Source of the DNA: Anaeromyces robustus
Lineage: Eukaryota; Neocallimastigomycota; Neocallimastigomycetes; Neocallimastigales; Neocallimastigaceae
Direction of reading: 5' to 3'
Assembly (NCBI GenBank): GCA_002104895.1
Contig: MCFG01000316.1
Span: 1-64,000 of the forward strand
DNA: 64,000 nucleotides
Translations under genes and position numbers: made by a program
Shown: one piece after another, positions 560 through 62,749 of the stretch
Position numbering within the stretch: the stretch's first letter is position 1
Layout: the number at the start of each line of letters is the position of its first letter
Notes under the pieces: model-generated
The model's database searches: none
Told to the model about the DNA's origin: nothing
Seen by the model: only the letters and a program-made list of their open reading frames with translations

Positions 560-1253
560 TGTCAAGACATCAAGTGCAATTGAAATTAGAATTTATAATT
601 TCAATTATTTTGATATATAATATTATTATTTATTATAATAATTATTAATAATTTTTTATGATAATTATATATAATAATTATTATTATAATATTTTATTTT
701 AAATATTATAATTTAAGATTATTTAAATAATCTAATAATATATTTTAATATATATATTATTTATATATATTCAATTATATTGAATAATATATTAATTTTA
801 TTACTATTTAATATCGATATTAATAACTTATTATATTACAAATTATTAATTATATTATACGTTAACGTATCACTTTAAATTAATGTATTAAATTAATGTA
901 TTAATATTTTATATTATATTTTATATTATTATTATCAAACTTACAAAGTATAAAAGAACATAACATAAAGTTATATTTAATGTTCTTTGTAAGGTTATTA
1001 ACACCTGAATTATATAGTTATATTAATATTATCAATATCTTATTTTTAAATAAAATTTACTATTAAAAAGTTAATCTTAAAGTGTTATTATTATTATTAA
1101 ATAAATATTGTGTTATTTGCATTACAATTAATTTAGTTATTATTTAAATATTATTTAATTATAAAAACTATTTAATTATAAAAACTATATAATTAGTCAT
1201 TCGACCTAGTAGACTTATTTAAATTAGAAAATAATCCAGTTGGAAACTTAACA
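560..1253 (+). mobile_element. Solo LTR, family S, copy 1
   Basis: A 694-bp unit from TGTCAAGACATC to GGAAACTTAACA, flanked on both sides by the 5-bp target duplication ATTTC. A second copy, also 694 bp, lies at 49952-50645 with a different duplication (TATCA). That defines it as a solo LTR. A TATAAAAG-type promoter box lies near 950. No internal domain of this family is present in the window. Confidence 0.9.
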
Positions 1254-1292: not shown

Positions 1293-2007
1293 TGTAACGA
1301 ATCTCTCAATTAGTAAAATAGTAACCATGGTCTAGTGGTTAGTAACTATGACCATCTGGGCGAACACTCTGGGTTCGACTCACACCTTGTTCCAAATTTT
1401 ATAAAAATTTTATTTTAAATTTATTTATTATAAATTTCTGTATTTTATTCTGTATTTGTTTCTGTATTTTATCTCTGTATTTCTTTATAGAATTACATGG
1501 AATGAAATTAGAAACTTTAAGAAAAAATTATATAATATTTCTTTATTTTTCTATGAGATTCATTTTATAACAAAATATCTTAGTTTCTAGCAATTTTTAT
1601 TATTTTTTATGAACTTTTATTTTTAAAACTATTTTTCCGCAAAAAGTATAAATAGGTGTAAAACTTTTAGTTAAAATATTTTTCTTTGTGCTTTTATTCT
1701 TTTATAACTTTATATATATTAGTAATAATTAATTCATAAGTAGTTTGAAATACTACAAAGATTAGTTATTATTAATTTTTAATAATTAATAAAACTAAAT
1801 TCTAATAAAACATATTTTAAATAAAAATAAAATAAAACTTAAAACTAAATCTTACTAATATATATATCTCGACACCGACCTTTCAGGTTAACAAAGGAAA
1901 GGTGTTCTGATATTGCAATAAGTATCTTTTATTTTAAATTTTATTTTGTTTGTGTTTACCTCAGATTTTGGTGTCAATTGTAATATTGGAACTACCGTTC
2001 CGTTACA
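1293..2007 (+). mobile_element. 5' LTR of element A
   Basis: Starts TGTAACGAATC and ends TTCCGTTACA, so the ends form a 7-bp inverted repeat TGTAACG/CGTTACA. A promoter-like AGTATAAATAGG box lies near 1647. The first 100 bp hold a tRNA-like module, listed separately. No convincing tRNA primer-binding site directly abuts the LTR end (internal region starts ATAAAAGCACCC). Confidence 0.92.
1321..1393 (+). promoter_or_regulatory. tRNA-like module with Pol III A and B boxes in the 5' LTR of A
   Basis: TGGTCTAGTGGTTA (1328-1341) matches the D-arm/A box of Asp/Glu-type tRNAs. GGGTTCGACTC (1371-1381) matches the T-arm/B box. Box spacing is that of a tRNA gene. The acceptor and anticodon arms do not form a clean cloverleaf, so it reads as a tRNA-derived promoter and not a functional tRNA. 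The same module recurs in the 3' LTR (boxes at 5760-5773 and 5803-5813). Confidence 0.8.
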
Positions 2008-3563
2008 ATAAAAGCACCCAACAAAAGAAACACCGCCTGGAACCTTAGTGTCGAAAATTTTGGAATCTGCTACCAATTTTTAGTTTCTACCTTTTATTGG
2101 ATTCTACCGCCTTTTAGAACTACCTTTGGATATTACTTCCTTTAGTCTTAATCTTAGAATATTACTTTTCTTAGTCTCTGGATACTACCTGTTCTAGTAA
2201 TAATCTCCTAATCCCTTGAATACTTCTATCCTAGTTTTTGATTACCAGTTATCTACCTTGTATAATCCTTAGTTTTTAGTCTTGTCTTAGTCTTGTCTAC
2301 TTCTTGTTTACCCTTTGTCTACTTTTCTTGAATAATTCTAGTATCCATCCTATCAAGTATCCTTCTCGAATAAAAATTTTTCTTGATAAAGTAAAAAAAT
2401 AAAGCACCCAGATTCCACCCGTCCTTAGTTTAACCAAGTTCTTAGAACTACCGCCTAGTTTCTCTCCTTAGTCTTGGCCACTTTACTTTGAATTGCCTTT
2501 GAACTACTTAGAAACCTTAGTTATTGGAAATTTTGTACCACTCTAGAATAGTTAAAAAATTTTCCTTGTGTAACATTTTGAAAAATTTTCCTTGTACTAC
2601 CCGAAGATAAAAATAGTGTACCCCATAGCATTTGAAAAAGATTTTGTACTACCTTGCCAGTGATATTTTCGGAAAATTAATAAAATTAAATTAAAAAAAT
2701 TAAATAAATTAAATTAAGTGAATGAATATTAATAAATTAAATAAATTAATATAAAAAAATAAGTGAATGAATAAATTATAGAATAGATAAATTAAATTAT
2801 TTTTCAAAAAAATTTTTTCTAGTCAAAAAAAAAAAAAAAAAAAAAAAAATATATATTTATAAACTTAATAAAATTTTTAATAAGGAGAATCATTCTGAGG
2901 ATCCTTATTTTTATACTGTCTTTTTTCTTTTTATAATTAAATTTCAAGTTTCACATTGGCCCTCGCTGGTAGGCTCAGACGTAAGTCCTACATTCAGCTC
3001 GAGTAAGTTGATAAACTGAAAGAACAGCAGTGTGAAATAGAAAAAATTATTAAAAGAAAAACATCTTTGTAAACTTCTGTGTAATTAAATATCTATTAAA
3101 CTCTTAAGGTAAATTATTTGTAAAATATACTAGGAGCGTTTAGAGCTCATATACAGAGTGTTTGGCGTAAGTAACTAGTTTCTAGTAGGTTAAGAAACTA
3201 TAGTCAATTAGTTACTTAGGTATTGATAAAAGTGGGTAGTGTGAAAAGCACGCTTTCTTGGGGGAAGGAATTGTTGTGTGATAAAAAGCACTGCAATATC
3301 GGACGTTCAAGTTCAATACCTTCGTAAGCTCTGGCAAATAAGGAACTTCAGTCACCGAAGGCTGGAGGTTGGTCGTGAAGGTGAAGCGACTTTAATTATA
3401 TAGTTTTAATATTTATTTCGAGGTCTAGTATATACCTCTAGTTAGTAGCTTTTGCCGGTTTATTTTTAAAGTTGTAAGGCATAAAAAGCGAAATTAAAAT
3501 TTAAATTTACCTTAATAAACAATTTGAATTCCAAGTCGAGACCAATAATAAACTAATCAAACA
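2008..3563 (+). other. Untranslated leader of element A
   Basis: About 1.55 kb with no long frame. It is richer in C and T than the surroundings, has a 26-29-base poly(A) near 2827, and a GC-richer block at 2945-3040 whose ends are complementary (TTTCACA...TGTGAAA), which could form a stem. In retroelements this interval usually carries primer-binding, dimerisation and packaging signals; which bases do so here is not evident. Confidence 0.55.
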
Positions 3564-5408
3564 ATGATGAACGAAGATAATTTTTTCAATTTAAATGTTA
3601 CGTACAAAGATGGATTCGCTGGAGACCGCCGTTTCTTTAAAGGCTTTCTTGCAAAAATGAATTTTGTCTTTATGTTGCAACCAGAAAAATTTTCTGAAGA
3701 TCCAGTTAAGGTTGCATACATCATTTCCAGACTTTACGGTTCTGCAATGAATTGGGCTGCAACTTTAATTGAAAATGTGGACCCATGTTTAGACGACTAT
3801 GAAGCGTTTATATCCAAGTTTAAAGCTACCTTTGGAAATTATGATTCAACCTTCATAGCAAACCAAAAGCTCAGAACCATTAAACAGAAACGTCTTGGAG
3901 ATGTAAGAAGCTATATCCTGGAGTTTAATAAATATGCAGATGACTCTTCTTGGAATGAAGCTGCTAAAATGGATGCTTTTCTCGCAGGATTAAACGACAA
4001 TATTGCAACCAGAATCTTAGAAATGTTTCCTGGACCACAATCCTTATTCTCTCTTCAAACCATAGCTTCTCGTATAGATTTAAGACTTTCTACGCATAAT
4101 CAATATTTTAAATCAAATAATTCAAGTAATCATTCTTTTGGCCGTCATGCTAACTCTTTTCAATTTTCCTCAAGTAAATCTAATGAAACAATAACTCGTG
4201 AAGAAAAAGAAAGAAGAAGAAAAGAACATCTTTGTTTCTACTGTGGATCGAAAAATCATCAAGTTAATAATTGCCCTTTAAAGAATAAAGTGAATGAATA
4301 TGACAATAAACCCTCTTCCAGCAATGCTTTTATTTCTAATCCAGAATCCAAACCAAAATCAAGACCTAGACTTTCTGATGATCCATCTTTGAATGCTCCA
4401 GTTGCCGAATTCAATCTACAAACTTTAAACTCTTCTTGCAATGCTAAATTACTCATCGATTCAGGTTCTCAATTAAATCTTATGGATATACACTTTGCTA
4501 AAGAAAACAATATTCCTTTTGATTCTGATTCTACTTTTCCTGCCGTTTCTGGAGTAGCCGGAAATCAAACAATTTTTGGTAAAACGTTTCCCATCTCGTT
4601 GAAATATAAAAATCACCTTTGTAAAACAGAATTCTATATTGTGGATCTACCTTCGTATTGTGGTATTCTTGGAATAGATTGGCTCGTAACTCACAATCCC
4701 TCTATCAATTTTACAACTAAAGAAATAACTTTCAATTCAAATTACTGTCTTTCAAATTGTTTAATACTCCCAAATTCATTCGTGACGAATTCTCAAAATA
4801 CAAAATCTGATAAATCTTGTAAACCTCATTCTAAAAATAATAATAATCTTGATAATCACTCTGGCAATAAACCTTCTTGTAATACTTCTTGTTTCCACTC
4901 AGAACGTACAAAATCAATTAATTCACAACCTTTGAAAAATAATAATAAACCAACTTATGTTTCTAACTCTTGTGTACTTCCTAGAAAAAATTCTTGTAAT
5001 AATCCTGTTAATCTTAGTACAAATTCTTGTAATCCTGTTAACTCTAGTAATTCTCCTTGTAACTCTGTTAATCTTAGTAACGATTCTTTTAATAATAATT
5101 CTTGTAATAATCTGAAATCTGGTAATCAATCTGTTTCCTCTGGCAATCCTAATTCTTGCTCAAAATCAAATTCTTCAAATCAACCTATTCAAAATATTAA
5201 TTTTTCAAAACCCAATAATCCAATCTTTTCGAAGGAGAGTGTGAATAATAAGAATAAATCAAATTCAAATTTTTATTCAAAATCAATTAAATACAAAAGA
5301 AAACAAAACAACAAATTCAAAGAATTTAAAGTTGATGCATACCTCCCTTATGAAGATAAACCACCTGAAAATTTACCCTGTTATTTTGTTAAAAACAAAT
5401 CAAAATGA
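3564..5408 (+). CDS. Gag-protease protein of element A (614 aa)
   Basis: The single protein of element A. Residues about 5-180 look like a gypsy-type Gag capsid region (e.g. RFFKGFLAKMNFVF, ALL-helix character). At about 223-237 there is a zinc knuckle C-x2-C-x4-H-x4-C (CFYCGSKNHQVNNC), which binds RNA in this family. At about 296 the retroviral-type aspartic protease active site LIDSGSQ appears, with its usual downstream partner ILGIDWL near 368. In autonomous gypsy elements RT would follow. Here an Asn/Ser/Cys-rich low-complexity stretch leads to a basic tail and stop. The start is the first of two adjacent ATG codons after the leader. The frame is fully open, consistent with a young copy. 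The function is inferred from motifs. Confidence 0.88.
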   Translation: MMNEDNFFNLNVTYKDGFAGDRRFFKGFLAKMNFVFMLQPEKFSEDPVKVAYIISRLYGSAMNWAATLIENVDPCLDDYEAFISKFKATFGNYDSTFIANQKLRTIKQKRLGDVRSYILEFNKYADDSSWNEAAKMDAFLAGLNDNIATRILEMFPGPQSLFSLQTIASRIDLRLSTHNQYFKSNNSSNHSFGRHANSFQFSSSKSNETITREEKERRRKEHLCFYCGSKNHQVNNCPLKNKVNEYDNKPSSSNAFISNPESKPKSRPRLSDDPSLNAPVAEFNLQTLNSSCNAKLLIDSGSQLNLMDIHFAKENNIPFDSDSTFPAVSGVAGNQTIFGKTFPISLKYKNHLCKTEFYIVDLPSYCGILGIDWLVTHNPSINFTTKEITFNSNYCLSNCLILPNSFVTNSQNTKSDKSCKPHSKNNNNLDNHSGNKPSCNTSCFHSERTKSINSQPLKNNNKPTYVSNSCVLPRKNSCNNPVNLSTNSCNPVNSSNSPCNSVNLSNDSFNNNSCNNLKSGNQSVSSGNPNSCSKSNSSNQPIQNINFSKPNNPIFSKESVNNKNKSNSNFYSKSIKYKRKQNNKFKEFKVDAYLPYEDKPPENLPCYFVKNKSK

Positions 5409-5724
5409 AAAAGAAAAACTTAAATAATGAATCTCAACTATTAAACCTATTTTATCAATATTTTTATCAAACTTAGTATTATTATTAGTTTAAATCTTAG
5501 TTTAGTTTAGCTTAGTTTAGCTTATTATTATTATTAATATCATGTAAACTTTATTAATATTCATGTATTTTATATTCATGTATTTTTATTAATATCAAAT
5601 TATATTATTTTTACACCTATATAGTATAGTTTTAGTATAGTTTAAAATTTAGTTAAAACTTTTCTTAGTATAGTTTAGCCTAGTCTTAAGATTCGTCTGG
5701 TATCCGAATCCTGAAGGAGGACCA
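5409..5724 (+). other. 3' untranslated tail and polypurine tract of element A
   Basis: Short T-rich tail with the repeated motif TTAGTTTAG, then CGTCTGGTATCCGA and GAAGGAGGACCA directly against the 3' LTR. The same pair of motifs precedes the 3' LTR of the miniature element C at 37,943-37,971, tying A and C to one lineage. Confidence 0.7.
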
Positions 5725-6439
5725 TGTAACGAATCTCTCAATTAGTAAAATAGTAACCATGGTCTAGTGGTTAGTAACTATGACCATCTGGGCGAACACT
5801 CTGGGTTCGACTCACACCTTGTTCCAAATTTTATAAAAATTTTATTTTAAATTTATTTATTATAAATTTCTGTATTTTATTCTGTATTTGTTTCTGTATT
5901 TTATCTCTGTATTTCTTTATAGAATTACATGGAATGAAATTAGAAACTTTAAGAAAAAATTATATAATATTTCTTTATTTTTCTATGAGATTCATTTTAT
6001 AACAAAATATCTTAGTTTCTAGCAATTTTTATTATTTTTTATGAACTTTTATTTTTAAAACTATTTTTCCGCAAAAAGTATAAATAGGTGTAAAACTTTT
6101 AGTTAAAATATTTTTCTTTGTGCTTTTATTCTTTTATAACTTTATATATATTAGTAATAATTAATTCATAAGTAGTTTGAAATACTACAAAGATTAGTTA
6201 TTATTAATTTTTAATAATTAATAAAACTAAATTCTAATAAAACATATTTTAAATAAAAATAAAATAAAACTTAAAACTAAATCTTACTAATATATATATC
6301 TCGACACCGACCTTTCAGGTTAACAAAGGAAAGGTGTTCTGATATTGCAATAAGTATCTTTTATTTTAAATTTTATTTTGTTTGTGTTTACCTCAGATTT
6401 TGGTGTCAATTGTAATATTGGAACTACCGTTCCGTTACA
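5725..6439 (+). mobile_element. 3' LTR of element A
   Basis: 715 bp, apparently the same sequence as the 5' LTR, including the tRNA-like module and the TATA-type box. Followed by target duplication CATAT, which also precedes the 5' LTR. Confidence 0.92.
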
Positions 6440-6730
6440 CATATAAATTAAATAATCAAAAAAATTAAAAAACACTTCAATTTTATTAAAATTTAACATG
6501 CGATCGTTTTACATCTTTATTTCAAAAATTACAATTTTACACTAAAAATCAAAATATACAATATACACACTCAATTATTATCAAAATTAATATGAAAATG
6601 GACTATTAATTATTAAAAATATTCAATTTTATTATAAAATATTCACTATTATTGATATCAATTTTATTATTCAAAAAATAAATTTTTTTTTATAATTTTT
6701 CAATAAAAAATTTTTATTAATTAAAAATTT

Positions 6731-11729: not shown

Positions 11730-12259
11730 TGTAACGTTTGCTTTTACACAATAGGTTTATAAACAATAAAGTAATTTAAAATAAATATGTTTTGTTAGAA
11801 ATAAGTTTTATTAATTTTAAAGTATAAATATTAATTATTAATTAGTTATTATAATATTTCAAATTACTTATAAACTAATTAATAAAAGCACGAATTTAAA
11901 AATATTTTATTAATGAATTTTACACCTATTTATATTTTTTTTTGAAAATAATAAAAATTTCTAAAAAGTTCTCGAAACTTAAATTTTTTTGATAAAAAAG
12001 AATCTTATGGAAAAAGGATAAATTATAAAAAATTTTTATCCGAAAATTTCTGATTTTATTCTATTAATTTCTATGATAAAGTACAGAAATAAAATACAGA
12101 AATAAAATACAGAAATTAATAATAAATTTTTCTTAAAATAAAAAATTTTTTATAAATTGAGAATGAGTGTGAGTCGAACCCAAGGAGTTCAGCTCGATGG
12201 TCACAGTATTTAACCACTAAACCATGGTTACTAATTTACTGATTATGAGTTTCGTTACA
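11730..12259 (-). mobile_element. Solo LTR of the A group, minus strand
   Basis: 530 bp, ends TGTAACG/CGTTACA, flanked by target duplication AATAT. On the minus strand it carries the tRNA-like module near its start (A box at 12,214-12,224, B box at 12,171-12,181). It is clearly diverged from element A over most of its length, so it is a separate subfamily or an older copy. Confidence 0.85.
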
Positions 12260-18063: not shown

Positions 18064-18635
18064 TGTAACGAACTTAGTGAGAAATTCACTAGGTTGTTGT
18101 AGTATTTCAATAATTAAAATAAAATAAACAAACAAAATAAATAACACAATATTAAAACATAATGTTTATGGATTTATTTTGTATTTTATTTATTATTTAA
18201 ATATTTAATATTTTTCTTATTAATAATGACTCCCAGAGTAAAAATAGTATTAATACATTTCTTTTATATTCAAGACTTATTCTAAATCATTACGTGATTG
18301 GTTTACTTATTTAAATAACAAAATATTTAATTATTTAACTATTACTATAATTAAGTGAATACATAATTAGTATCTAAATAAAATCGTATTTATATCTAAG
18401 TGAACGAATAACTAATATCTAAATAAATCTAGCTAAGTGAATGAATAATTATAGACTAAATAATTCTATTAATAAAATAAGTAAATGAACAAATGTATTA
18501 ATAACTAAATAAATGAATAATTTTCCAAATCAAAAAGGTAAAAGTAGGATTCGAACCAGTGATATCTATGATAAAGGTAGAAGTAGTTACCGTTGAGCCA
18601 CGAAGTTCCTTAATGTCGTTGTTGATACCGTTACA
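18064..18635 (-). mobile_element. Solo LTR, family B, copy 1
   Basis: 572 bp with ends TGTAACG/CGTTACA and target duplication GACTG on both sides. The minus strand carries the tRNA-like module near its start: A box TGGCTCAACGG (18,590-18,600) and B box GGTTCGAATCC (18,547-18,557), which is an exact consensus match. Other copies: 40,088-40,659 and 47,981-48,567. Confidence 0.93.
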
Positions 18636-32634: not shown

Positions 32635-32716
32635 CGACGGCTGCAGGGTTTGAACCTGCGCAGGCAGAGCCTATTAGATTTCAAGTCTAACTCCTTAACC
32701 ACTCGGACAAACCGTC
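32635..32716 (-). tRNA. tRNA-Ser (TGA anticodon)
   Basis: 82 bases on the minus strand fold as a type II tRNA. The acceptor stem is GACGGTT with its complement and discriminator G. The D-arm is TCCGAGTGGTTAAGG, the anticodon loop CTTGAAA (anticodon TGA, reading UCA), and a long variable arm follows (AGGCTCTGCCTGC region). The T-arm is GGTTCAAACCC. There is no intron. It is the only convincing true tRNA gene in the window; a solo LTR starts 67 bp upstream of its 5' end. Confidence 0.95.
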
Positions 32717-32783: not shown

Positions 32784-33376
32784 TGTAAAGATTTGGAGTG
32801 ACCACTAGGTTATTGTAGGAAATTAATAATAAATAATAATATAATATATTAAATTATTTATAACACTATTGATTATTCACTTAATTAATTAGTAGATTCA
32901 TTTATATAATATATATTTGTTCATTTATTTATGGTTGATATTTATATTTTATTTATTATTAATTGATTGTTAATATCGACTCAAAGAGTCAAATAAAATA
33001 AAATACATGAATTTATATATTCAAAAATCTATTCTAAATTATTACATGATTGGGCAAATTATTTAAAATAAGAATTATATAATTATTTAATTATTATTTT
33101 AATTAAATAAATATAATATTAAGAACTAGATAAATTATTATATTAATTAAGTGAATAATAAATTAATATTTAAATAAATTTATTTCAATGAATACATATT
33201 ATTAATTTAAGTAAATTATTATCTAATAATTGAGTGAATATATTTATTATTAATTAAATAAATAATATTATTCCGAAAGGTAAAGAGTAAGGTTCGAACC
33301 AGAGACAACCAACATAATAATAGAAGCAGGTAGAACTGAGCCTAATTAGTAGCCATAATGGATCCATATCATTACA
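32784..33376 (-). mobile_element. Solo LTR, diverged B family, beside the tRNA gene
   Basis: 593 bp from TGTAAAGATTTGG to CATATCATTACA, flanked by target duplication TTATA. Shares the CACTAGGTT-TTGTAG end with family B. The minus strand carries the tRNA-like module (B box GGTTCGAACC at 33,291-33,300, weak A box around 33,332-33,344). It lies 67 bp upstream of the tRNA-Ser start. Confidence 0.88.
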
Positions 33377-36099: not shown

Positions 36100-36663
36100 T
36101 GTAACGAATTTCACAATTAATAAAATAGTAACCATGGTCTAGTGGTTAGTCACTATGACCATCTGGGCGAACACTCTGGGTTCGACTCACACTGTTACAA
36201 ACTTTATTAAAATTTTATTTTTTAAATTTTTTTATTATAAATTTCTGTATTTTATTTCTGTATTTTTATTTCTGTATTTTACGTAGAAATTAATAGAATA
36301 CAATCAAAAATTTAAGACAACTTTTATATTAAATTTTTCTAAATTTTTCTATAAGATTTTAATCAAAAGTTTCTAGAAATTTTAAATAACTTTTTACGAA
36401 GAAAACTATTTTTCCGTAAAAAGTATAAATAGGTGTAAAATTTTTTAATGATTAATTCTTCGCGATTTTATTAATTAATTATAAGTAATTCAGAATATTA
36501 CAAAATTAATTAATAAATAAATAAATTTTTACTTTTAATAAATCTAATAAAATAAGTTCTTATAAAACCAATTTTCTTTTCTGATTTACTTTCTGTGTAG
36601 ACCTGTTGGGTCAATCAAAATAATTGTGTAAAATAATTTACTTATTTTTTACAATTTATTACA
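36100..36663 (+). mobile_element. Solo LTR of the A group inside the L3 3' LTR
   Basis: 564 bp, TGTAACGAATTTC...TTTATTACA, target duplication ATTAG on both sides. The tRNA-like module matches element A almost exactly (boxes at 36,135-36,145 and 36,178-36,188), while much of the rest is diverged. Confidence 0.9.
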
Positions 36664-36976: not shown

Positions 36977-38556
36977 TGTAACGAATATGAGTTATTCTCA
37001 CTAGGTTGTTGTAGTAATTAATAATAAATAAAATAATAATATAAAACCATAAATAATTAAGTCGTTCAGTTTAATAGATATTTCAATATATTTTATTCGA
37101 GCTATTCATGTTGTTGTTTTATTTATTATTAATTACTACAACAACCTAGTGAGAATAACTCATATTCGTTACAATGTTGACTCCCGTTGGAAAACACTCA
37201 CTACCTTGTTGTAGTATTCCACTTCCGACGTTCCAAGTTACTAACATTATTTATTTTTATTTTATATTCAAATTATATACTAGAATTTCAAATTATGAAT
37301 CAAAATTGATATTTCCGGTTCTATGAAAAGTAATCTACTAGCGAATATTGGTTATACTACCCTGTGCCATAATTTTGGGAAAACTTCAGTTCACTTTCTA
37401 AACAGGCACTCATCCATCAAGCTTTGAAGGAAAAAATTTTAAATTCACTCATCCATTAAGTTATATCTCGAATTTCATCAAACAAATAATTTCTCCATCA
37501 AGAACTATTCACCTACCTTTTATTAAATCTTTCGGAATACTTCTAGCTACTCTAGTTCTTGAGAAAATTAGTTTTAACCTCCGATGCACTCAGCTGCGAT
37601 CTTTGAAATTTCTTTAAATTTTTAGTTCTAATTCAACCATTCTGGGATACCAACAACCGATCCATCAAGGAATTACTTGTGCCTGCCATTTAGAACCTTT
37701 TGGAGCTCGATGTCGGTTAAAATTCGTTCAAACTCGCTCTACCTTGTGATACTCTACCGCTGAATATACACCTTTATATCTCTGTTATTTTAATATTCTA
37801 TTATATCTTTGTAGATAATATCTTATATATTATTTCTAGGGTTTCTAATACTTTATCTCAATTCTTATCCTCTCTTAGTTATCTACAAATCTCCGGGTTC
37901 CGTTCCCATCTCTTATTTTCTACTCCTGTATATTAGTGATCGTCTGGTATCCGATCTTTAGAGGAGGACCATATAACGATATCAAGAATCGTTATGGTTA
38001 CTAAAGTGGTTCATTGGTACCTGCTTGTAATATCATACTAGTTGTCACTGGTTCAAATCTTACTTTTTACCTTTTCGAAATAATATTTATAATAATAAAT
38101 TAATTAAATGAATGAATCATTAATTTTTAGATAAACTTATAATTTAATTAAATGAATGATAAATAATAAGTTAAATAAATCTTAATTAAGTGAATACACA
38201 TTAATTAACTAAATAAATTATTAATAATTAGCAAATGGATAGATTAATTAATAATTAGATAAATTGTATTTTAATAATAATTAAATATATTTTATTTTAA
38301 ATTATATAACCAATCATGTAATAACTTAGAATAGATTTTGAATATAAAAACTTCATGTATTATTTTATTTTGACTCTTTGAGTCAACATTAACATTTCAA
38401 TTAGTAATAAATAAAATAATAATATAAAACCATAAATAATTAAGTCGTTCAGTTTAATAGATATTTCAATATATTTTATTCGAGCTATTCATGTTGTTGT
38501 TTTATTTATTATTAATTACTACAACAACCTAGTGAGAATAACTCATATTCGTTACA
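36977..38556 (+). mobile_element. Element C: miniature LTR retroelement (TRIM) with a palindromic left end
   Basis: Inserted in the L3 3' LTR with target duplication ACTAT. 3' LTR 37,972-38,556 (585 bp), internal region 37,174-37,971 (798 bp, non-coding), left LTR only 197 bp (36,977-37,173). The left LTR begins with a 57-bp inverted copy of its own right end. The right LTR holds a tRNA-like module (TGGTTCATTGG at 38,007-38,017, GGTTCAAATCT at 38,050-38,060). The purine tract TTTAGAGGAGGACC and upstream CGTCTGGTATCCGA match element A. It cannot encode its own enzymes. Confidence 0.88.
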
Positions 38557-40087: not shown

Positions 40088-40659
40088 TGTAACGGTATCA
40101 ACAACGACATTAAGGAACTTCGTGGCTCAACGGTAACTACTTCTACCTTTATCATAGATATCACTGGTTCGAATCCTACTTTTACCTTTTTGATTTGGAA
40201 AATTATTCATTTATTTAGTTATTAATACATTTGTTCATTTACTTATTTTATTAATAGAATTATTTAGTCTATAATTATTCATTCACTTAGCTAGATTTAT
40301 TTAGATATTAGTTATTCGTTCACTTAGATATAAATACGATTTTATTTAGATACTAATTATGTATTCACTTAATTATAGTAATAGTTAAATAATTAAATAT
40401 TTTGTTATTTAAATAAGTAAACCAATCACGTAATGATTTAGAATAAGTCTTGAATATAAAAGAAATGTATTAATATTATTTTTACTCTTTGAGTCATTAT
40501 TAATAAGAAAAATATTAAATATTTAAATATTAAATAAAATACAAAATAAATCCATAAACATTATGTTTTAATATTGTGTTATTTATTTTGTTTGTTTATT
40601 TTATTTTAATTATTGAAATACTACAACAACCTAGTGAATTTCTCACTAAGTTCGTTACA
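40088..40659 (+). mobile_element. Solo LTR, family B, copy 2
   Basis: 572 bp, TGTAACGG...CGTTACA, target duplication AATGG on both sides. tRNA-like module: A box TGGCTCAACGG (40,123-40,133), B box GGTTCGAATCC (40,166-40,176). Nearly identical to the copy at 18,064 in opposite orientation. Confidence 0.93.
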
Positions 40660-41340: not shown

Positions 41341-41585
41341 TTTCAAATAATTAAGAAAAAAATATTAATAATTTGGAATATGAAAATAAAAAATTAAATA
41401 TTTATTATAGAGATAGTTGAATTTGAATTTGTTTTAAATTATAATATTCCTATAATCACATAAATCTTTTATATTTTTATAATAAATAAAATTGTTGAAA
41501 ATAATTATGCAATTGATGAATTAAAATATTAAAAGACAAATTGATGTAGAAAATTTATTATGTAATTGTTATTTTTATATTAATT
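41341..41585. other. A/T-rich spacer
   Basis: Nothing recognisable. Confidence 0.4.
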
Positions 41586-42285
41586 GTAACGGAATGGTTG
41601 TTCCAATATTACAATTTACACCAGAACTGAAAATGAACACGAAAACAGAATAAAATTAAAGTAATTATACCTTGTAATATAAGAACACCTTTCCTTTGTT
41701 AACCTGAAAGGTCGGTGTCGAGATATATATATTAGTAAGATTTAGTTTTAAGTTTTATTTTATTTTTATTTAAAATATGTTTTATTAGAATTTAGTTTTA
41801 TTAATTATTAAAAATTAATAATAACTAATCTTTGTAGTATTTCAAACTACTCTTTAATTAATTATTACTAATATATAAAGTTATAAAATAAAAGCACAAA
41901 GAAAATATTTCAACTAAAGATTTTACACCTATTTATACTTTTTACGGAAAAATAGTTTTAAAAATAAAAGTTCATAAAAAATAATAAAAATTGCTAGAAA
42001 CTAAGATTTTTTGATATAAAATGAATCTCAGAAAAATAAAGAAATATTATATAATTTTTTAAAAAATAATAAAAATTGCTAGAAACTAAGATTTTTTGAT
42101 ATAAAATGAATCTCAGAAAAATAAAGAAATATTATATAATTTTTTAAAAAATAATAAAAATTGCTAGAAACTAAGATTTTTTGATATAAAATGAATCTCA
42201 GAAAAATAAAGAAATATTATATAATTTTTTCTTAAAGTTTCTATTTTTATTCCATGTAATTCTATGAAAAAATACAGAAAAAAAA
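41586..42285 (-). mobile_element. Partial A-group LTR with an internal triplicated block
   Basis: On the minus strand this is the right-hand part of an A-type LTR, ending CGTTCCGTTACA at 41,586. It runs leftward through the TATA-type box but does not reach the tRNA-like end. An 85-bp unit is repeated three times (landmark TTGCTAGAAA at 41,991, 42,076 and 42,161); other A copies have it once. Confidence 0.8.
41975..42235. repeat. 85-bp tandem repeat, three copies
   Basis: Three apparently identical 85-bp units inside the A-type LTR, implying recent expansion by slippage or unequal exchange. Confidence 0.88.
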
Positions 42286-47541: not shown

Positions 47542-48609
47542 TGTTAAGGATTTGAATGGATTATAGATATAAGCCACATTATATCTATTAAATAATTATT
47601 ATTAAGCATGTTTATGCGCCCCAAATCCTTAAACAATTTAATTATTATTAATTTTATTAATAATACAGTTGAATATAAATTATACTTTTATTTTATTAAC
47701 AAATTATATTCTTATCTTATATTATTTTTAATATATATTATTATAATTAATATAAATATTAATTTACTTATATTATTGTATTGTTCAATGAAAATGTATA
47801 AAAGATTGATGAAATATGTATTCTTACATTCTTTGTAAGATTATTAACCTAATAATAATCTAATAAAATATAATAATAAAATAATTAAACAATTTTAAAT
47901 AAAGAAACTATATTTATAATAAAACTTATAATAAAATTAATATTAGTGAACACCCTACGTATTAGATTATTGAGCATTTCTGTAACGAACTTAGTGAGAA
48001 ATTCACTAGGTTGTTGTAGTATTTCAATAATTAAAATAAAATAAATTAAAATAAAATAAACAAACAAAATAAACAACACAATATTAAAACATAATGTTTA
48101 TGGATTTATTTTGTATTTTATTTAATATTTAAATATTTAATATTTTTCTTATTAATAATGACTCAAAGAGTAAAAATAATATTAATACATTTCTTTTATA
48201 TTCAAGACTTATTCTAAATCATTACGTGATTGGTTTACTTATTTAAATAACAAAATATTTAATTATTTAACTATTACTATAATTAAGTGAATACATAATT
48301 AGTATCTAAATAAAATCGTATTTATATCTAAGTGAACGAATAACTAATATCTAAATAAATCTAACTAAGTGAATGAATAATTATAGACTAAATAATTCTA
48401 TTAATAAAATAAGTAAATGAACAAATGTATTAATAACTAAATAAATGAATAATTTTCCAAATCAAAAAGGTAAAAGTAGGATTCGAACCAGTGATATCTA
48501 TGATAAAGGTAGAAGTAGTTACCGTTGAGCCACGAAGTTCCTTAATGTCGTTGTTGATACCGTTACAATTTCGACCAAGTTAATCTTTAAACCAAATTTA
48601 AACTTTACA
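47542..48609 (+). mobile_element. Solo LTR R1, copy 1, holding a B-family LTR
   Basis: TGTTAAGGATTTG...AACTTTACA, target duplication TTAAA. About 476 bp without the insert at 47,981-48,567. TATA-type box TGTATAAAAG near 47,795. The ends of its first block are mutually complementary (AAGGATTTG / CAAATCCTT), giving a possible 5' hairpin. Confidence 0.85.
47981..48567 (-). mobile_element. Solo LTR, family B, copy 3, inside R1
   Basis: 587 bp, TGTAACGAAC...ACCGTTACA, duplication ATTTC. tRNA-like boxes on the minus strand at 48,522-48,532 (A) and 48,479-48,489 (B). Confidence 0.93.
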
Positions 48610-54872: not shown

Positions 54873-56099
54873 TTGATTATAATAGAAAATATTTTTCATT
54901 CATATTACACTGATCTATTTTATTTTAATAATTTTAGAAAAGTACAGTTAGATAAAATGGATTTCAATAGTGAGAGCTCAAGTACTTCAAACACAACTAT
55001 TCAAAATGACACAACTTCAAAGCTTATCACTGCTTTCACCGATTTTCTCCCTGCTTTCTTTTCTCCAGGTGGTGTATTACAAAAAGAAAATGAAGAAAAG
55101 AATAAACAAGGTGTTCTAGAAACTGTAATCCAGTGCGAAGACTTCTTTAAAGAACACCCAGATTCTTTTAGAAATGATGAATCGAAAATCTCTTTTGTAA
55201 TTAATAAGCTTACTGGAACAGCCAGGACTTGGGGTCTTTCTCTCCTTTGCGATGGAACTTTAAAAACTCTCAAGTTCGAAGAATTTAAAATACTCCTTTT
55301 AGACAATTTTGACACGGGTAACGAAGAAAAGCAGAAATATGTCATTATGAATAAACTTTGGGGACTTAAACAACAACGTTTAGGAGGTGCTGCCGAGTAC
55401 ACTATTGAGTTCCGAAGATTGGCTGGACGTCTGGGATGGCCTGATAAAGTACTCATTGACATTATTGGAAAGGGCTTAATCGATCGAGTAAGGGAAGAAT
55501 TTGATAAGATCGAGAAGCCTGATACCTTGTTCAAAGCCACCAATAGTATCATTGGAATAGACAAGAAATGCTACCTTGAGAGCTGCATTCGCAACAAATC
55601 CGGAAGCAATAATAACTATAAATCCTTTAACAAAAGAAGAAAAGAGCTCAATAAAACCGAAAATCACTTAAAGAAAAATAAATTCAAAAAAAATAAATTC
55701 AAAAAAGAGCTCTTATCAGCCAATTATACTCCTTCTGGTGAAACATCCATGACTACCACCTTTTATATTCAAATTAATGGGAAAAATATAAAAGCCAATA
55801 TTCTAATTGACTCTGGCTCAGGTAGAAGTTTTCTCTGCAAGAATTTTACCACTGCCCATAAAATCCCTATTTCTGGGCTATCTTCTCCCATCAACATTCA
55901 ACTCCCAAATAGTAAGAGTATGACTATTAAACAGACAACCAAGCCGCTAAGGTTGAAGTTTATGGATCATACTGAAAACTTTGAATTTTGTATTGGAAAC
56001 CTCTCACTCCAAGGAATAAATGGTATCCTAGGTAGAGATTGGTTAAGCGAGCACAAAATCCCTACATCGACTATACGAAAAATCATATCTACTTCCTAA
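54873..56099 (+). mobile_element. Element E: Gag-protease region
   Basis: The likely protein start is the ATG at 54,957 (MDFNSESSS); the open frame reaches further left without a better start. The Gag capsid part includes TGTARTWGLSLLCDG and LWGLKQQRLGGAAEYTIEFR, typical of fungal gypsy Gag. A Lys/Asn-rich basic segment replaces a visible zinc knuckle. The protease active site LIDSGSGRSFLC lies near 55,806 and GILGRDWL near 56,022. The end of the region overlaps the start of pol in another frame. Confidence 0.88.
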
Positions 56100-59024
56100 G
56101 TAAACACTGTGGATCTCACTGTCCTTCAGCCAATAAAAACAGATTCCTTACTCAATATTCAAATATCTCAGCTCCAATGGTAGAAAACGAATCTACTACC
56201 ATGAACACTACTGACACTACTAACGCAATTAATGACTCAATAATACCTCTAGAATCTATTTCAGAAGACGAGCTACTTGAGGATGTCTGTTGTGCCATGA
56301 TTCAGAACTCCGGAGAAGCTAATCAAGAAGCAAACAATGAAGAAATCATTGAAAAATACTATTCCGACCTTAAAATCGTTTTTGAAAAGAAAAATGCCGA
56401 CAAGCTGCCGCCGCACAGAGAATACGATATTGCCATTGAGTTAATTCTTGGTGGACAACTGTATTTTGGACCTACATATTCTCTTACCGTGAATGAACTT
56501 AATGCCTTAAGAGAATATATTAAAGAAAACTTAAGAAAGAACTTTATAAGGAAATCCAGATCTCCTGCTGGTGCGCCTATCCTTTTTGTCAGGAAACACG
56601 ACGGAACTTTAAGACTTTGCATAGATTATAGAAGACTTAATGCTGTTACAATCCGTAACAGCTATTCAATTCCAAGAATTAGTGACTTAATAGAATCATT
56701 TAAGGATGCCACAATATTCACTCGACTAGATCTCCGTTCGGCTTATAATCTAGTCAGAGTAAAAGAAGGAGACGAGTACTTAACTGCTTTCCGAACACCA
56801 CTTGGCCACTATGAGTATCTAGTAATGCCTTTTGGCCTTCGCAATGCTCCCTCCGTTTTTCAACGCTTCATTGAGGATGTCTTAGATAGTGTTATTGGAA
56901 TCTGCGTCAAGGTATACTTGGATGATATAATCATCTATTCAAAAAGCTTAGAAACCCACATCAAAGATGTAAGGATCGTTTTATCTCTTCTTATAGAAAA
57001 CGGATTATACGCCAAACTAGAAAAGTGTGAATTCCATGTCAAAGAAACCACTTTTCTAGGCTTTACTATTACTACTCATGGGATAACTATGGATAAGAAC
57101 AAGGTGAAATCGGTCTTGGAATGGCCTATTCCAACCAACGTAAGGGAATTACAAAGCTTTCTCGGATTATGTAATTTCTATAGGAAATTCATTAAAAATT
57201 TTGCCAAATACATGGAACCTCTTAGGAAGTTCCTTAAGAAGGGCAATCCGTTCATTTTGGACAATGAAACAGATTGTGCCTTCAATAAATTAAAAAATGT
57301 GTTCAATACCGACGAAGTCCTCATATTTCCGGATCCCGATAAAGAATTTATCGTGGAAACCGATGCAAGCGACTTCGCAATCGGCTGTGTGTTATCGCAA
57401 AAAAGCGATAAAGATAATCTACTTCACCCAGTAGCCTTCCATTCCAGGTCTCTGAATAAAACAGAGATGAACTACGCTATATATGACAAGGAATTACTTG
57501 CCATCATCACTGCTTTCGAGGTCTGGAGGCATCATCTTGAAGGTGCCAGGTTCCCTGTTCAAGTCCTTACCGATCACAAGAATCTTCTTTATTTCAAGAA
57601 GCCTCAACATTTAAATCAACGACAAATTCGCTGGAGCTTATACCTTTCCAAGTTTGATTTCAGAATTGCTTATAGACCTGGTGCTAAAGGCGGTAAACCT
57701 GATGCACTTTCTAGAAGACCGGACTATAAGTTGACTTCTCCGGTAGAGTCAAATACTATTATTAACAAAAATGTTTTTTGTTGCGCTACTAGAGACAATA
57801 ATATTGATATTTTGATTAAGTCTCAAAAAGATGACAAGTATTGCCGTACTATACTTCAAAAAATCAAACAAAATGGAAAAAACTTAAAGAGTTCTTTATT
57901 CAGTTATGTCGAAGGTGTTCTCCACTTTCAGAACAAAATCATTGTTCCATCCTCCTTAAAAGCCAGGTTACTTAAATCCTTCCACGACGCACCTACTAGT
58001 GGTCATCAGGGGGTAGATAGGACTTTTGAAAAACTTCAAAGGAACTACTGGTGGCCTAATATGAAGAAGGATGTACAAAATTATGTTGCTTGCAATATTT
58101 GCTGTAAAAATAAAATTCGGAGACACAAGCCTTACGGTTTATTGCAACCGCTTCCCATTCCTACAAAACCCTGGGAAATTATTGGGGCTGATTTTATTGT
58201 AAGTCTTCCAACTTCTCAAAATTGTACATGTGTTATGGTTGTGTCGGATCATCTAACAAAAATGATCCATTTAATACCCTGTGCTGACGTCCCATCCGCC
58301 GATCTTACCGCTAGAATGATGTTGAACAACGTTTTCAGATATCATGGTTTTCCTAAACTAATTTTATCTGATCATGGTTCACAATTTTCTTCTTTATTTT
58401 GGACTTCACTTTGCTCTGCTCTTCATGCTAAAGCTAGACTTGCCACTGCCCACCACCAGCAGACAAATGGTCAAGTCGAAAGAGCCATCTGTCATTGAGC
58501 AATACATAAGATGCTATTGTTCTACTGCTCAAAGCGAGTGGTGCTTTTATTTACCTCTTTGTGAATTTTCTTACAATAACTCCTTAAATAAATCAACAGG
58601 TAAATCACCATTCTTCGCTAATTATGGTTTTCATCCTAACTCAGTTATTGATGCTCCTCCCTCTCTTCTTAAAGATAGCGCTTCTGCTCTTACTAGAGAT
58701 TGGGCTGCTCACTTCGATGCTCTCCGCCAACATTTAACCAAAGCAAAAGAAGATTTCAAGAAATACGGAGATAGAAGAAAAACTAATGGTCCTAACTTCC
58801 AAGTTAATGACTTAGTTTATTTAAGAAGATATTACTTTACAAATGAACCCTCTAAGAAATTAGCTTCCCAATATTTAGGACCTTTTAAGATCATCGAGAA
58901 GAGAGAAAGAATGAATTACCGTCTTGAACTTCCAGAAAACTTACACCTTCACCCGGTATTTCATATCTCGCAGTTGGAGCCATACGTAAAAAGAAATAAA
59001 GAGTTGGAGGAGCCATCTTCGTAA
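56039..59024 (+). mobile_element. Element E: reverse transcriptase, RNase H and integrase region
   Basis: RT landmarks: RLCIDYRRLNAVTIRNSYSI, TRLDLRSAYNL, FRTPLGHYEYLVMPFGL, and the catalytic VYLDDIIIYSK. RNase H: VETDASDFAIGCVLS, YDKELLAI, LTDHKNLLYF. Integrase: an H-H-C-C zinc region around 57,985-58,110 (GHQGVDRTFEKLQRNYWWP), the DDE core with ADFIVSLP and LSDHGSQFSS, and the GPY/F module LGPFKIIEKRERMNYRLEL near 58,875, closing HPVFHISQLEPYV. This is the standard gypsy order. The region is close to intact with about one break. Confidence 0.92.
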
Positions 59025-59687: not shown

Positions 59688-60200
59688 TGTAACGAATCTC
59701 TCAATGGTAAGGTTCGAGGTTATATTTTATTTTTACTTTTATTTTATTTTATTTATATTTATTGTTGTTATTTTTATTAAGAAAAATTTATTCTTTTTAT
59801 ATTTTATGAAATTTTTATAGTTTAAGAATTACATTTTATACTTTAACTAGTTATTTTAATTAAATATTCATTTACTTTAGTTTAATAATTTTAATTGATA
59901 TAATATTTTCTTAATATAGTTATACTTTTTAATAAACATAAATTATTTACAATAATATTTTTAAATTAAAATATTTAATAATAATTATTGATATAAAAAT
60001 ATAATAATAATTTTTAATAAATATATTTCAATATTAATAATTAAGTATTTTTAGTGTAATTTACATCTTCTTAATTAATATTATTAAAAATAAAAATATA
60101 ATAATATATTTAAAAATATTTAAATTAAATAATTGTAATAATTTTATTTAGTTTAATTATTCATTAAAATTTAATAAGGTTAGGAAAACATTTAAGAATA

Positions 60201-61531
60201 TGTTAAATGAGGGTAGTTTTGGTTTAATAATGGTCAGGTCAAGATGTTTAATTAATAACAAAATAACTAATTAAACAATTATATAATTAATAGGCAAATT
60301 TATTTATTAATACACAATAAATTAATTAATTAAAAGAACACTTTTTTAAAATAATTAAGTTTTATAATAATATTTTTTATTAATAATTAATTAAGAAAAG
60401 TTTAAATAATAATTATTAAGTCATTAATTCTAAGTTATTTAATAATCTTACCAAGATTAAAAGGAATTGTAATTTCAATCCTTATTTATACTTTTTCTAA
60501 ATCTAATAATTATTAATACATTTAATTATTATAATCTATTGATAATATATTTATACATGTATAATTTTAAATAAAATATATGAATAAAATAATATTGATA
60601 AAAATCTAACTATATAAAACTAATATAAAACTATGTAAACTATTAATAAATTTAATGATAAGAATTTATAATCTAAGATTTAGATTTATAACTATTCTAA
60701 TTATCTAACTAGTTAACTATTTAATTATTTAATTATTTAGTATACTATTTAATTATTTATCTATATATTAATTATTTTTATCTTTGGATTTTTATGATCT
60801 TTTCTGTATAATTAATTATTATAGATAAAATGGGATATTTTTAATTATTTAAGATCTTAAGTAAATTTTAAATCTTTTTGAGATTTTTAGAATTCTAAGA
60901 ATTTCTGTAAATTAATATAATAATCAACTATTCTAATTTTTATAAAAATAATTAACAATTATTATAATATATTATATAAATTATTATTATTATTCTAATT
61001 AATATTTTATAAAATTATTTGAAGGCGTTTTCTGTATATCTGAATGATTATTATTATTATAAGTTATAATATAATTATTGAAATAAAAAGATTTTATCTA
61101 TATAAATTTTATAATTATTTATTTATGGATCCTTGTAAATATTTAATTATATTTTTATATTGTGTAAACCTTTAAAGTCCAATATCTCGCCAACCAGTGG
61201 TCCAAATGGGCTGAAATTCAGATATGTTGTAGCTCTTGAGAAGAGCTTCTCAATGAGCATAAAATCAAAGCGAAGCGGAGGAAATCTTCAATATTTGGTG
61301 AGTTATCGTTATTTTTCTTCTGATTATTTTTATTAATATCTTAAAGGTTAAATTAAGTTGATTAATATTTATTTAATTTGTCCAAACCCTTTACAATATC
61401 AATTTAATTACTTTTTAATATTTGTTTATTTTATTGAAAATCGAATTTTAAGTGATTTAGTCAATAACGAAATTTAAATGTAATTGATCTGTTAGTGAAT
61501 TTCAATTTTAAATCCACTAATATTCGCGACA
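60201..61531 (-). mobile_element. Solo G-family LTR, minus strand, copy 3
   Basis: 1331 bp, TGTTAAATGAGG...ATTCGCGACA, target duplication GAATA on both sides. Nested in L6. Confidence 0.9.
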
Positions 61532-61536
61532 GAATA

Positions 61537-61999
61537 TGTTAAGGATTTGAATGGATTATAGATATAAGCCACATTATATCTATTAAATATTTATTATTCA
61601 GCATGTTTATGCGCCCCAAATCCTTAAACAATTTAATTATTATTAATTTTATTATTAATACAGTTGAATATAAATTATACTTTTATTTTATTAACGAATT
61701 ATATTCTTATCTTATATTATTTTTAATATATATTATTATAATTAATATAAATATTAATTTACTTATATTATTGTATTGTTCAATGAAATGTATAAAAGAT
61801 TGATGAAATATGTATTCTTACATTCTTTGTAAGATTATTAACCTAATAATAATCTAATAAAATATAATAATAAAATAATTAAACAAATTTAAATAAAGAA
61901 ACTATATTTATAATAAAATTTATATTAGTGAACACCCTACGTATTAGATTATTGAGCATTTCGACCAAGTTAAACTTTAAACCAAATCAAAACTTTACA
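61537..61999 (+). mobile_element. Solo LTR R1, copy 2
   Basis: 463 bp, TGTTAAGGATTTG...AACTTTACA, also flanked by GAATA on both sides and separated from the G LTR only by that 5-bp duplication. The open frame at its start is a composition artefact. Confidence 0.9.
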
Positions 62000-62749
62000 G
62001 AATAATAATAATTTTTAACATAATCAATTATTTTAATTTATTCTTTACCACCAATTAGTAAAACAGTAACCATGGTCTAGTGGTTAGTAACTATGACCGT
62101 CTGGGCGAACACTCTGGGTTCGACTCACACCTTGTTCCAAATTTTATAAAAATTTTATTTTAAATTTATTTATTATAAATTTCTGTATTTTATTCTGTAT
62201 TTGTTTCTGTATTTTATTTCTGTATTTCTTTATAGAATTACATGGAATAGAATTAGAAACTTTAAGAAAAAATTATATAATATTTCTTTATTTGTCTATG
62301 AGATTCATTTTATAACAAATTATCTTAGTTTCTAGCAATTTTTAGTATTTTTTATGAACTTTTATTTTTAAAACTATTTTTCCGCAAAAAGTATAAATAG
62401 GTGTAAAACTTTTAGTTAAAATATTTTTCTTTGTGCTTTTATTCTTTTATAACTTTATATATATTAGTAATAATTAATTCATAAGTAGTTCGAAATACTA
62501 CAAAGATTAGTTATTATTAATTTTTAATAATTAATAAAACTAAATTCTAATAAAACATATTTTTAAATAAAAAATAAAATAAATCTAAAATATAAATTAT
62601 ACTAATATATATCTCGACACCGACCTTTCAGGTTAACAAAGGAAAGGTGTTCTGATATTACAAAGTATAATCACTTTCTTTTATTTTATTTTCGTGTTCA
62701 TTTTCAGTTCTGGTGTCAATTGTAATATTGGAACAACCGTTCCGTTACA

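What the first reader, a model, noticed from the sequence alone, without database searches (positions are those of the whole stretch)
1293..6439. LTRs that carry a tRNA-like Pol III promoter (families A, B, C)
At least nine LTRs in this window end in TGTAACG...CGTTACA or a near variant and have 5-bp target duplications. All that retain the relevant end contain, within about 110 bp of one end, an A box and B box spaced as in a tRNA gene. Family A uses TGGTCTAGTGGTTA and GGGTTCGACTC; family B uses TGGCTCAACGG and GGTTCGAATCC; family C uses TGGTTCATTGG and GGTTCAAATCT. The modules differ between families while position and LTR ends are shared, which suggests an old, maintained feature rather than one chance SINE insertion. 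Plant Cassandra TRIMs hold 5S rRNA promoters in their LTRs; a tRNA-type counterpart with a Gag-coding member is, to my knowledge, unusual.
Basis: partly seen in the sequence, partly recalled or inferred. Interest (0 to 1): 0.9.

Follow-up and report, generated by a model that had tools for sequence, protein, structure and literature searches.

The report
LTRs that pose as tRNA genes
In a likely fungal genome, several families of jumping gene carry tRNA-gene promoter signals in their end repeats, and four other kinds of mobile element sit upstream of those signals at the same spacing they keep from real tRNA genes, so the signals likely work in the cell as RNA polymerase III promoters.

Summary
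Confirmed and extended. The window lies in a 70 Mb, very AT-rich genome (likely an anaerobic gut fungus). Seven LTR types (A1-A5, B, C), plus two found here (D, E), begin TGTAACG and carry A and B boxes at tRNA spacing near the LTR start. The pattern occurs 336 times genome-wide, 0 in the reversed control; 98 of the first 100 (of 155) polypurine-anchored LTR starts keep a module. Carriers include a likely autonomous chromovirus (A3), a gag-protease element (A1) and a non-coding TRIM (B). Five types tested have Tf1-like self-priming sites, predicting a genomic RNA start about 300 bp past the module.

Strongest evidence: a natural integration assay. Termini of four other mobile families (R1-R4) lie 36-41 bp upstream of 27 of 93 module-LTR starts, and of 0 of 45 LTR 3' ends; the same families lie 65-68 bp upstream of 12 of 40 tRNA genes. 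Measured to the A box the distances agree (73.4 and 73.3 bp). The module is very probably recognised as a Pol III gene in vivo; transcripts and benefit are untested.

Non-coding TRIMs with tRNA-like LTRs are published (Helenus, 2024), function unproven. Modules in coding chromoviruses, and the integration evidence, appear new.

The parts
1293..2007 (+). family A1 5' LTR
   Evidence: identical to 5725-6439; TGTAACG...CGTTACA; TSD CATAT at 1288-1292 and 6440-6444
1328..1338 (+). A box TGGTCTAGTGG of the A1 5' LTR (LTR position 36)
1372..1381 (+). B box GGTTCGACTC of the A1 5' LTR
1647..1652 (+). TATAAA, predicted Pol II TATA box of the A1 LTR (position 355)
1688..1697 (+). predicted start of the genomic RNA: 10 nt complementary to the site just after the LTR (self-primer)
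   Evidence: GTGCTTTTAT; same arrangement in A3, A5, B, C
2008..2019 (+). predicted self-priming primer-binding site ATAAAAGCACCC
3564..5408 (+). gag-protease ORF, 614 aa, no reverse transcriptase
   Evidence: Pfam DUF4939, Retrotrans_gag, Ty3_capsid above cut-off; zinc knuckle and protease below cut-off
5713..5724 (+). polypurine tract GAAGGAGGACCA
   Evidence: GGAGGACCA before 155 LTR starts genome-wide
5725..6439 (+). family A1 3' LTR, A box 5760-5770, B box 5804-5813
11730..12259 (-). A3 solo LTR, A box 12214-12224, B box 12171-12180
   Evidence: TSD ATATT
18064..18635 (-). B solo LTR, A box 18590-18600, B box 18548-18557
   Evidence: TSD CAGTC
36100..36663 (+). A2 solo LTR, A box 36135-36145, B box 36179-36188
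   Evidence: TSD ATTAG, ends ATTACA
36977..38556 (+). C element; 3' LTR 37972-38556 with A box 38007-38017 and B box 38050-38059; 5' LTR aberrant, without module
   Evidence: TSD ACTAT
40088..40659 (+). B solo LTR, A box 40123-40133, B box 40166-40175
   Evidence: TSD AATGG
47981..48567 (-). B solo LTR, A box 48522-48532, B box 48480-48489; sits inside an R3 copy
   Evidence: TSD GAAAT
62052..62749 (+). A1-type LTR F with decayed start, A box 62073-62083, B box 62117-62126
41585..42285 (-). A1-type LTR G, 5' part with module lost
560..1253 (+). R2 copy ending 39 bp upstream of the A1 LTR, 74 bp before its A box
   Evidence: TSD ATTTC
61537..61999 (-). R3 copy ending 73 bp before the A box of LTR F
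   Evidence: TSD GAATA
32784..33376 (-). R1 copy ending 67 bp upstream of tRNA-Ser nucleotide 1
   Evidence: TSD TTATA
32635..32716 (-). tRNA-Ser (TGA) gene with R1 upstream
   Evidence: ARAGORN and Rfam RF00005, 59.4 bits

Best explanation
These LTRs carry, in their U3 part, tRNA-type A and B boxes that likely act as a working internal Pol III promoter, because four other mobile-element families lie upstream of the boxes at the spacing they keep from real tRNA genes. Inferred steps: TFIIIC would bind the boxes and place TFIIIB upstream; the integration machinery of R1-R4 would read that complex as a tRNA gene and insert about 73 bp before the A box; Pol III would make a short RNA (roughly 80-100 nt) that is not a tRNA and not the element's genome. 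The genomic RNA is predicted to come from a separate Pol II-type TATA promoter about 300 bp further on, and to self-prime like Tf1. What the carrier gains is untested; I think most likely the module acts as a mobile tDNA, keeping the LTR open or insulated.
For: Boxes at tRNA spacing in nine LTR types; 336 genomic matches, 0 in the reversed control; 98 of the first 100 listed PPT-anchored LTR starts keep a module, 3 of these with a damaged box. R termini 36-41 bp upstream of 27 of 93 module-LTR starts and of 0 of 45 LTR 3' ends (Fisher p 6e-6), and 65-68 bp upstream of 12 of 40 tRNA genes; distance to the A-box T 73.37 (SD 1.22, n=27) and 73.25 (SD 0.83, n=12). Frequency alike, 29% and 30%. All 28 LTR spacers compared and all 12 tRNA spacers differ, so independent insertions. 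Genome-wide pattern scans: 20 of 23 R-type termini upstream of A1/A2 starts and 10 of 11 upstream of B starts at 36-41 bp, partly the same copies. In D, whose A box is 8 bp nearer the LTR end, R lies at 45 and 48 bp, as predicted from the A box, and in a third copy at 27. Self-priming sites in five of five types tested.
Against: No RNA or ChIP data; integration reports factor binding at best, not transcription. The module scores as no tRNA in Rfam. Conservation of the whole module is only moderate, and between B and C hardly above the LTR mean. R at off positions: 27 bp in one D copy, 32 bp in one A3 copy, 34 and 45 bp in two A copies (a further match at 25 bp is no known R). No R-type terminus in the scan of part of family E. 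Two A1 3' ends have a TGTAACG terminus 38-39 bp away; the one inspected is an unknown element without an evident module.
Confidence: 0.82

Rival explanations
1. The fixed spacing comes from LTR ends, not from the boxes: either R elements target LTR edges, or the module LTRs insert next to R ends.
For: Only three insertions test a family with a shifted A box, and one of them is off; in most cases insertion order cannot be read from the target duplications.
Against: Same spacing to the A box at immobile tRNA genes; none at 45 LTR 3' ends; D distances 45, 48 and 27, none in 36-41; one R4 lies in what reads as the internal region just before a D 3' LTR, so it probably came later (its far side was not seen).
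Confidence: 0.07
2. The module is a fossil: a captured tRNA or SINE piece carried along without present function.
For: Kojima (PMC10886601) proposes SINE insertion as origin of Helenus; the cloverleaf is lost; copies within a family are young, so conservation within a family says little.
Against: Boxes are shared by nine types whose sequence between boxes differs widely, at a nearly constant A-B distance of 43-45 bp; R insertions treat them as tRNA genes.
Confidence: 0.06
3. The module makes the genomic RNA of the non-coding members (the model implied for Cassandra and Helenus), with Pol II only in coding members.
For: B is a 1658-bp TRIM without an ORF of 60 aa.
Against: B and C have the same TATA plus 10-nt self-primer layout as the coding members, about 300 bp past the module, and T-runs follow the B box.
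Confidence: 0.1
4. The conserved feature is an RNA or DNA hairpin at the start of U3, and the box resemblance is incidental.
For: A and E types share a 6-8 bp hairpin around the A box; 2 of its 6 predicted pairs show two-sided changes, though one of these is broken in 4 of 13 rows.
Against: B and C do not show it in single-sequence folds yet keep boxes and have R upstream; covariation term is small, -0.27 kcal/mol.
Confidence: 0.05

Closest known systems
Helenus TRIMs (TRIMp3; Kojima 2024, PMC10886601)
   Same: tRNA-like boxes A and B inside LTRs, 5-bp TSD in fungi, PPT, several families per genome, functional tRNA mostly not encoded
   Different: Helenus are non-coding, 311-1263 bp, with primer sites matching host tRNAs; fungal ones are tied to Copia and were found in rusts and a few Agaricomycetes; promoter function unproven. 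Here carriers include gag- and integrase-bearing chromovirus-like elements, priming is predicted to be by the element's own RNA, and insertion evidence supports function
Cassandra TRIMs (5S promoter in LTR)
   Same: Pol III promoter of a small-RNA gene inside an LTR
   Different: 5S rather than tRNA type; non-coding, in green plants; Pol III transcripts are reported (as stated in PMC10886601)
Tf1/Tj1 self-primed elements (Tj1: PMC4600332, abstract and outline seen)
   Same: self-primed reverse transcription
   Different: the abstract mentions no Pol III module in the LTR; Tj1 itself inserts upstream of Pol III genes, whereas no CGTTACA module-LTR end was seen in 250 bp upstream of 40 tRNA genes
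TRE5-A, DGLT-A, Skipper, Ty3 (Pol III-targeted retrotransposons; PMC5391098 and PMC5006619, abstracts and outlines seen)
   Same: R1-R4 look alike in habit: fixed distance upstream of tRNA genes; TRE5-A also hits A/B-box loci without tRNA context
   Different: here the A/B-box loci with insertions are the LTRs of other retrotransposons; distance about 66 bp versus about 47 (TRE5-A), 15 (DGLT-A) or within 12 bp (Tj1)

Membership tests
Helenus (TRIMp3) | tRNA-like sequence with boxes A and B in the LTR | tested here: met
Helenus (TRIMp3) | short element without coding capacity | tested here: not met
   met for B (no ORF of 60 aa in the 514-bp internal part of one copy, total 1658 bp); not met for A1 (gag-protease) and A3 (integrase plus chromodomain ORF in a 7033-bp element)
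Helenus (TRIMp3) | primer-binding site complementary to a host tRNA | tested here: inconclusive
   10-nt self-complementarity found in A1, A3, A5, B, C instead; complementarity to host tRNAs was not scanned
Helenus (TRIMp3) | 5-bp target duplications in fungi | tested here: met
Cassandra | 5S rRNA promoter in the LTR | tested here: not met
   no 5S match up to E 10 in Rfam scans of the window and nine loci; boxes are tRNA type
Tf1-type self-primed chromovirus | element RNA 5' end complementary to the site after the LTR | tested here: met
   10 of 12 nt in five of five types tested, 36-45 bp after TATAAA; 0-2 of 1000 shuffles; the RNA 5' end itself is predicted, not mapped
Tf1-type self-primed chromovirus | integrase with C-terminal chromodomain | tested here: met
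   A3 3' ORF of 390 aa; 85%-identical homologues carry PF00665 and PF00385 (the ORF itself was not scanned with Pfam). A1 and B lack it; the other types were not read whole
tRNA gene | cloverleaf scored by the tRNA model | tested here: not met
SINE | module mobile by itself, outside LTRs | not tested
   searches were anchored on the LTR end

The most novel reading that the evidence does not exclude
Autonomous and dependent chromovirus-like retrotransposons carry a working tRNA-gene mimic in their LTRs that does not make their genomes; each new copy becomes a mobile Pol III landing pad, and four tRNA-gene-targeting mobile families follow them with a precision of a few base pairs, so one set of mobile elements supplies and spreads the safe harbours of another.
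Probability: 0.6. Interest if true: 0.85.

Novelty: new variant of a known kind. Interest (0 to 1): 0.77.

Why it matters
It gives sequence-only evidence that a tRNA-like LTR promoter is recognised in vivo as a Pol III gene, the point left open for Helenus. It finds such modules in coding, likely autonomous elements, where Kojima argued that sharing a long LTR stretch was unlikely, and separates the module from genome production. It also describes an ecological link between mobile elements: one group moves Pol III targets around the genome and another uses them as landing sites. It can be tested in any sequenced relative.

Tried and rejected
Considered and dropped: (1) a real tRNA gene in the LTR (no Rfam or ARAGORN match). 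(2) The module as reverse-transcription primer: the site after the LTR is complementary to the predicted RNA start; complementarity to the module was looked at by eye only, for A1. (3) Module-to-module targeting by the carriers: a B and an A5 solo LTR hit A3 LTRs within 1 bp of each other about 150 bp from the LTR start, and one A1 sits in another A1 LTR, but only about 6 of the 12 flanks flagged as LTR-in-LTR, out of 95, look real, the rest being short AT-rich matches; too few to claim. (4) Terminator analysis: T-runs follow the B box, but are expected anyway at 81% AT. (5) Pair counts for the hairpin: two calls failed on string length and were given up; the RNAalifold result is weak. (6) Overall module conservation as proof: too modest.

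Rows dropped: 2 of 95 flanks that were B 3' LTRs. LTR 3' flanks numbered 48 and 45 (the C end motif was rewritten); both gave 0 hits. My first terminus list took R3's 5' end for R1; corrected on. R4's second end was added only.
Full report
WHAT WAS CHECKED. The window is contig C242 of a 70.17 Mb genome in 769 contigs; the window has 18.8% G+C. The gag and integrase proteins have relatives labelled Orpsp1 and Piromyces sp. E2 among mostly unnamed hits; with the base composition this points to an anaerobic gut fungus (inference; that Orpsp1 is an Orpinomyces code is recalled). The A element 1293-6439 is an LTR retrotransposon with identical 715-bp LTRs, CATAT duplications, a polypurine tract and a gag-protease ORF but no reverse transcriptase.

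THE MODULE. In A, B and C the A-box T lies at LTR position 36 and the B box starts 44-45 bp later; in the new families D and E the A box is at position 28 and the distance 43-44 (for A1, A4, A5 and E4 the script printed a weaker alternative A box further upstream). Five A subfamilies, B and C share, beyond the TGTAACG end, mainly box columns (TGG...A..GGT and GGTTC.A). As a block the module is more alike between A subfamilies (0.78) than the rest of the LTR (0.50), but 42 of 640 windows reach that, and between B and C it is 0.65 against 0.59, reached by 156 of 510 windows, so block conservation alone is weak evidence. Chance is excluded by shuffling (0-9 of 2000) and by 336 genomic matches against 0 for the reversed pattern. 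To sample without asking for boxes, I anchored on the polypurine tract: 155 LTR starts, 111 with strict boxes. Of the first 100 listed, 28 lacked the strict match (lists compared by eye); all 28 were fetched: 13 are family D and 10 family E, both with A/B-box-like modules, 3 are A copies with a damaged box, 2 have lost the module. So 98 of 100 keep a module. It does not score as a tRNA.

CARRIERS. B pairs spaced about 1086 bp form a 1658-bp TRIM; the 514-bp internal part of one copy has no ORF of 60 aa. An A3 element at C56 spans 7033 bp with GGACC on both sides, and the end before its 3' LTR encodes integrase and a chromodomain; its middle was not read, so autonomy is inferred. A1 has gag-protease only. 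In A1, A3, A5, B and C the 12 nt after the 5' LTR are complementary over 10 nt to an LTR segment 36-45 bp past TATAAA; where the primer site differs between types the LTR segment differs with it. This is the layout of Tf1/Tj1 self-priming. It predicts a genomic RNA start at LTR position 369-409, well past the module, so the module is unlikely to make the genome.

NATURAL INTEGRATION ASSAY. I examined 5' flanks of 93 module-LTR insertions, taken from the first 100 of 336 places, B copies and earlier loci, leaving out polypurine-preceded LTRs (2 of 95 flanks dropped). All-against-all comparison showed repeats ending about 38 bp before the LTR. They are here called R1 (593 bp in the window), R2 (694), R3 (463) and R4 (about 1.33 kb). 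All have TG...CA ends; R1, R2 (two copies) and R3 have perfect 5-bp duplications in the window and look like solo LTRs; for R4 no duplication was shown and its class is open. R1-R3 occur in either orientation; R4 was seen with one end only at this spacing. Known R termini lie at 36-41 bp in 27 of 93 flanks; the others seen were at 32, 47, 115, 242, 289, 459 and 485 bp. At 45 genomic 3' flanks of at least 60 bp (median 400) there were none. The 28 spacers compared are all different, so these are independent insertions. R is found at A1-A4, B and C (places matched to by hand).

In 40 tRNA genes picked from the 63 scored hits before their flanks were seen (cluster repeats thinned), R1, R2 or R4 termini lie 65-68 bp upstream of nucleotide 1 in 12; in a 13th, R3 lies 144 bp upstream, about 66 bp before a tRNA-Glu-like gene in between (read by eye). 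The window's tRNA-Ser has R1 at 67 bp. Converted to the A-box T, the distance is 73.37 bp for LTRs and 73.25 bp for tRNA genes. Genome-wide scans for R-type termini gave 20 of 23 at 36-41 bp for A1/A2 starts and 10 of 11 for B, partly overlapping the sample; 20 such junctions, including three for D, were then fetched and most carry a known R. For A1 3' ends, 10 matches: 7 element-internal, 2 a TGTAACG terminus at 38-39 bp, 1 at 27 bp; the one TGTAACG case inspected is an unknown element without an evident module, unexplained. For D, whose A box is 8 bp nearer the end, three matches: 45 (R4, in what reads as the element's internal region, so probably later than the D element), 48 (R3) and 27 (R3). 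For part of E, none.

INTERPRETATION. tRNA genes do not move, so R elements are the likely movers, and they sit at a fixed spacing from Pol III genes. That they treat the LTR module the same way is best explained by Pol III factors assembled there in vivo. The same logic was used for TRE5-A, which hits A/B-box loci without tRNA context (PMC5391098, abstract). What is shown: boxes, spacing, R positions. What is inferred: factor binding, transcription, benefit. I favour a mobile tDNA role (open or insulated LTR).

NOVELTY. Kojima 2024 (PMC10886601: abstract, outline, passages, sections 3.2 and 4 seen) named Helenus, TRIMs with tRNA-like LTRs in rusts, some Agaricomycetes, animals and Selaginella, states that Pol III function is unvalidated, and argues that autonomous partners are unlikely to share a long LTR stretch. 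Of PMC5391098, PMC4600332 and PMC5006619 I saw abstract and outline; of PMC5911963 passages. Searches listed no paper whose title or abstract start describes such modules in anaerobic fungi, in coding LTR elements, or as integration targets of other retrotransposons; listings were capped in some, and subscription papers and preprints are not held. Recalled, not looked up: Pol III transcripts from murine leukaemia virus LTRs, foamy virus LTR microRNAs, and Ty3 profiling of Pol III start sites.

Noticed in passing
window:36977-37173: The 5' LTR of the C element lacks its own start: it begins with an inverted copy of its 3' end, giving long terminal inverted repeats, perhaps a strand-transfer error.
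   Followed up: no
window:47542-50645 and 60200-61999: R3, R4 and R2 copies pile up with 5 bp between neighbours (49946/49952, 61531/61537), as repeated integration at one spot would leave; no A/B box lies within 190 bp of the 50645 end.
   Followed up: partly
window:53839-59687: Separate Ty3-type gag-pol element (gag 54957-56099, pol 56177-58498) with repeats that do not begin TGTAACG; a TGTAACG...CGTTACA element seems inserted at 59688-62749.
   Followed up: partly
L036 (C94:124407) and L041 (C171:101151): A B and an A5 solo LTR inserted within 1 bp of each other at about position 150 of two A3 LTR copies, same orientation.
   Followed up: partly
L132-L171: Many tRNA genes share an upstream motif like TATGGATTTAGAAATAAT...ATATTTAAGG about 10-60 bp before the gene; several tRNA-Arg-like genes closely follow a tRNA-Glu-like gene (types read by eye).
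   Followed up: no
L190 (C249:32004-32319): Unknown element starting TGTAACGGATTGTTACAACAC 38 bp from an A1 3' end.
   Followed up: partly
window:32784-33376: R1, found upstream of tRNA genes, is itself related to family C (77%) and keeps a B box GGTTCGAACC, so a module carrier can also be a Pol III-targeted element.
   Followed up: partly
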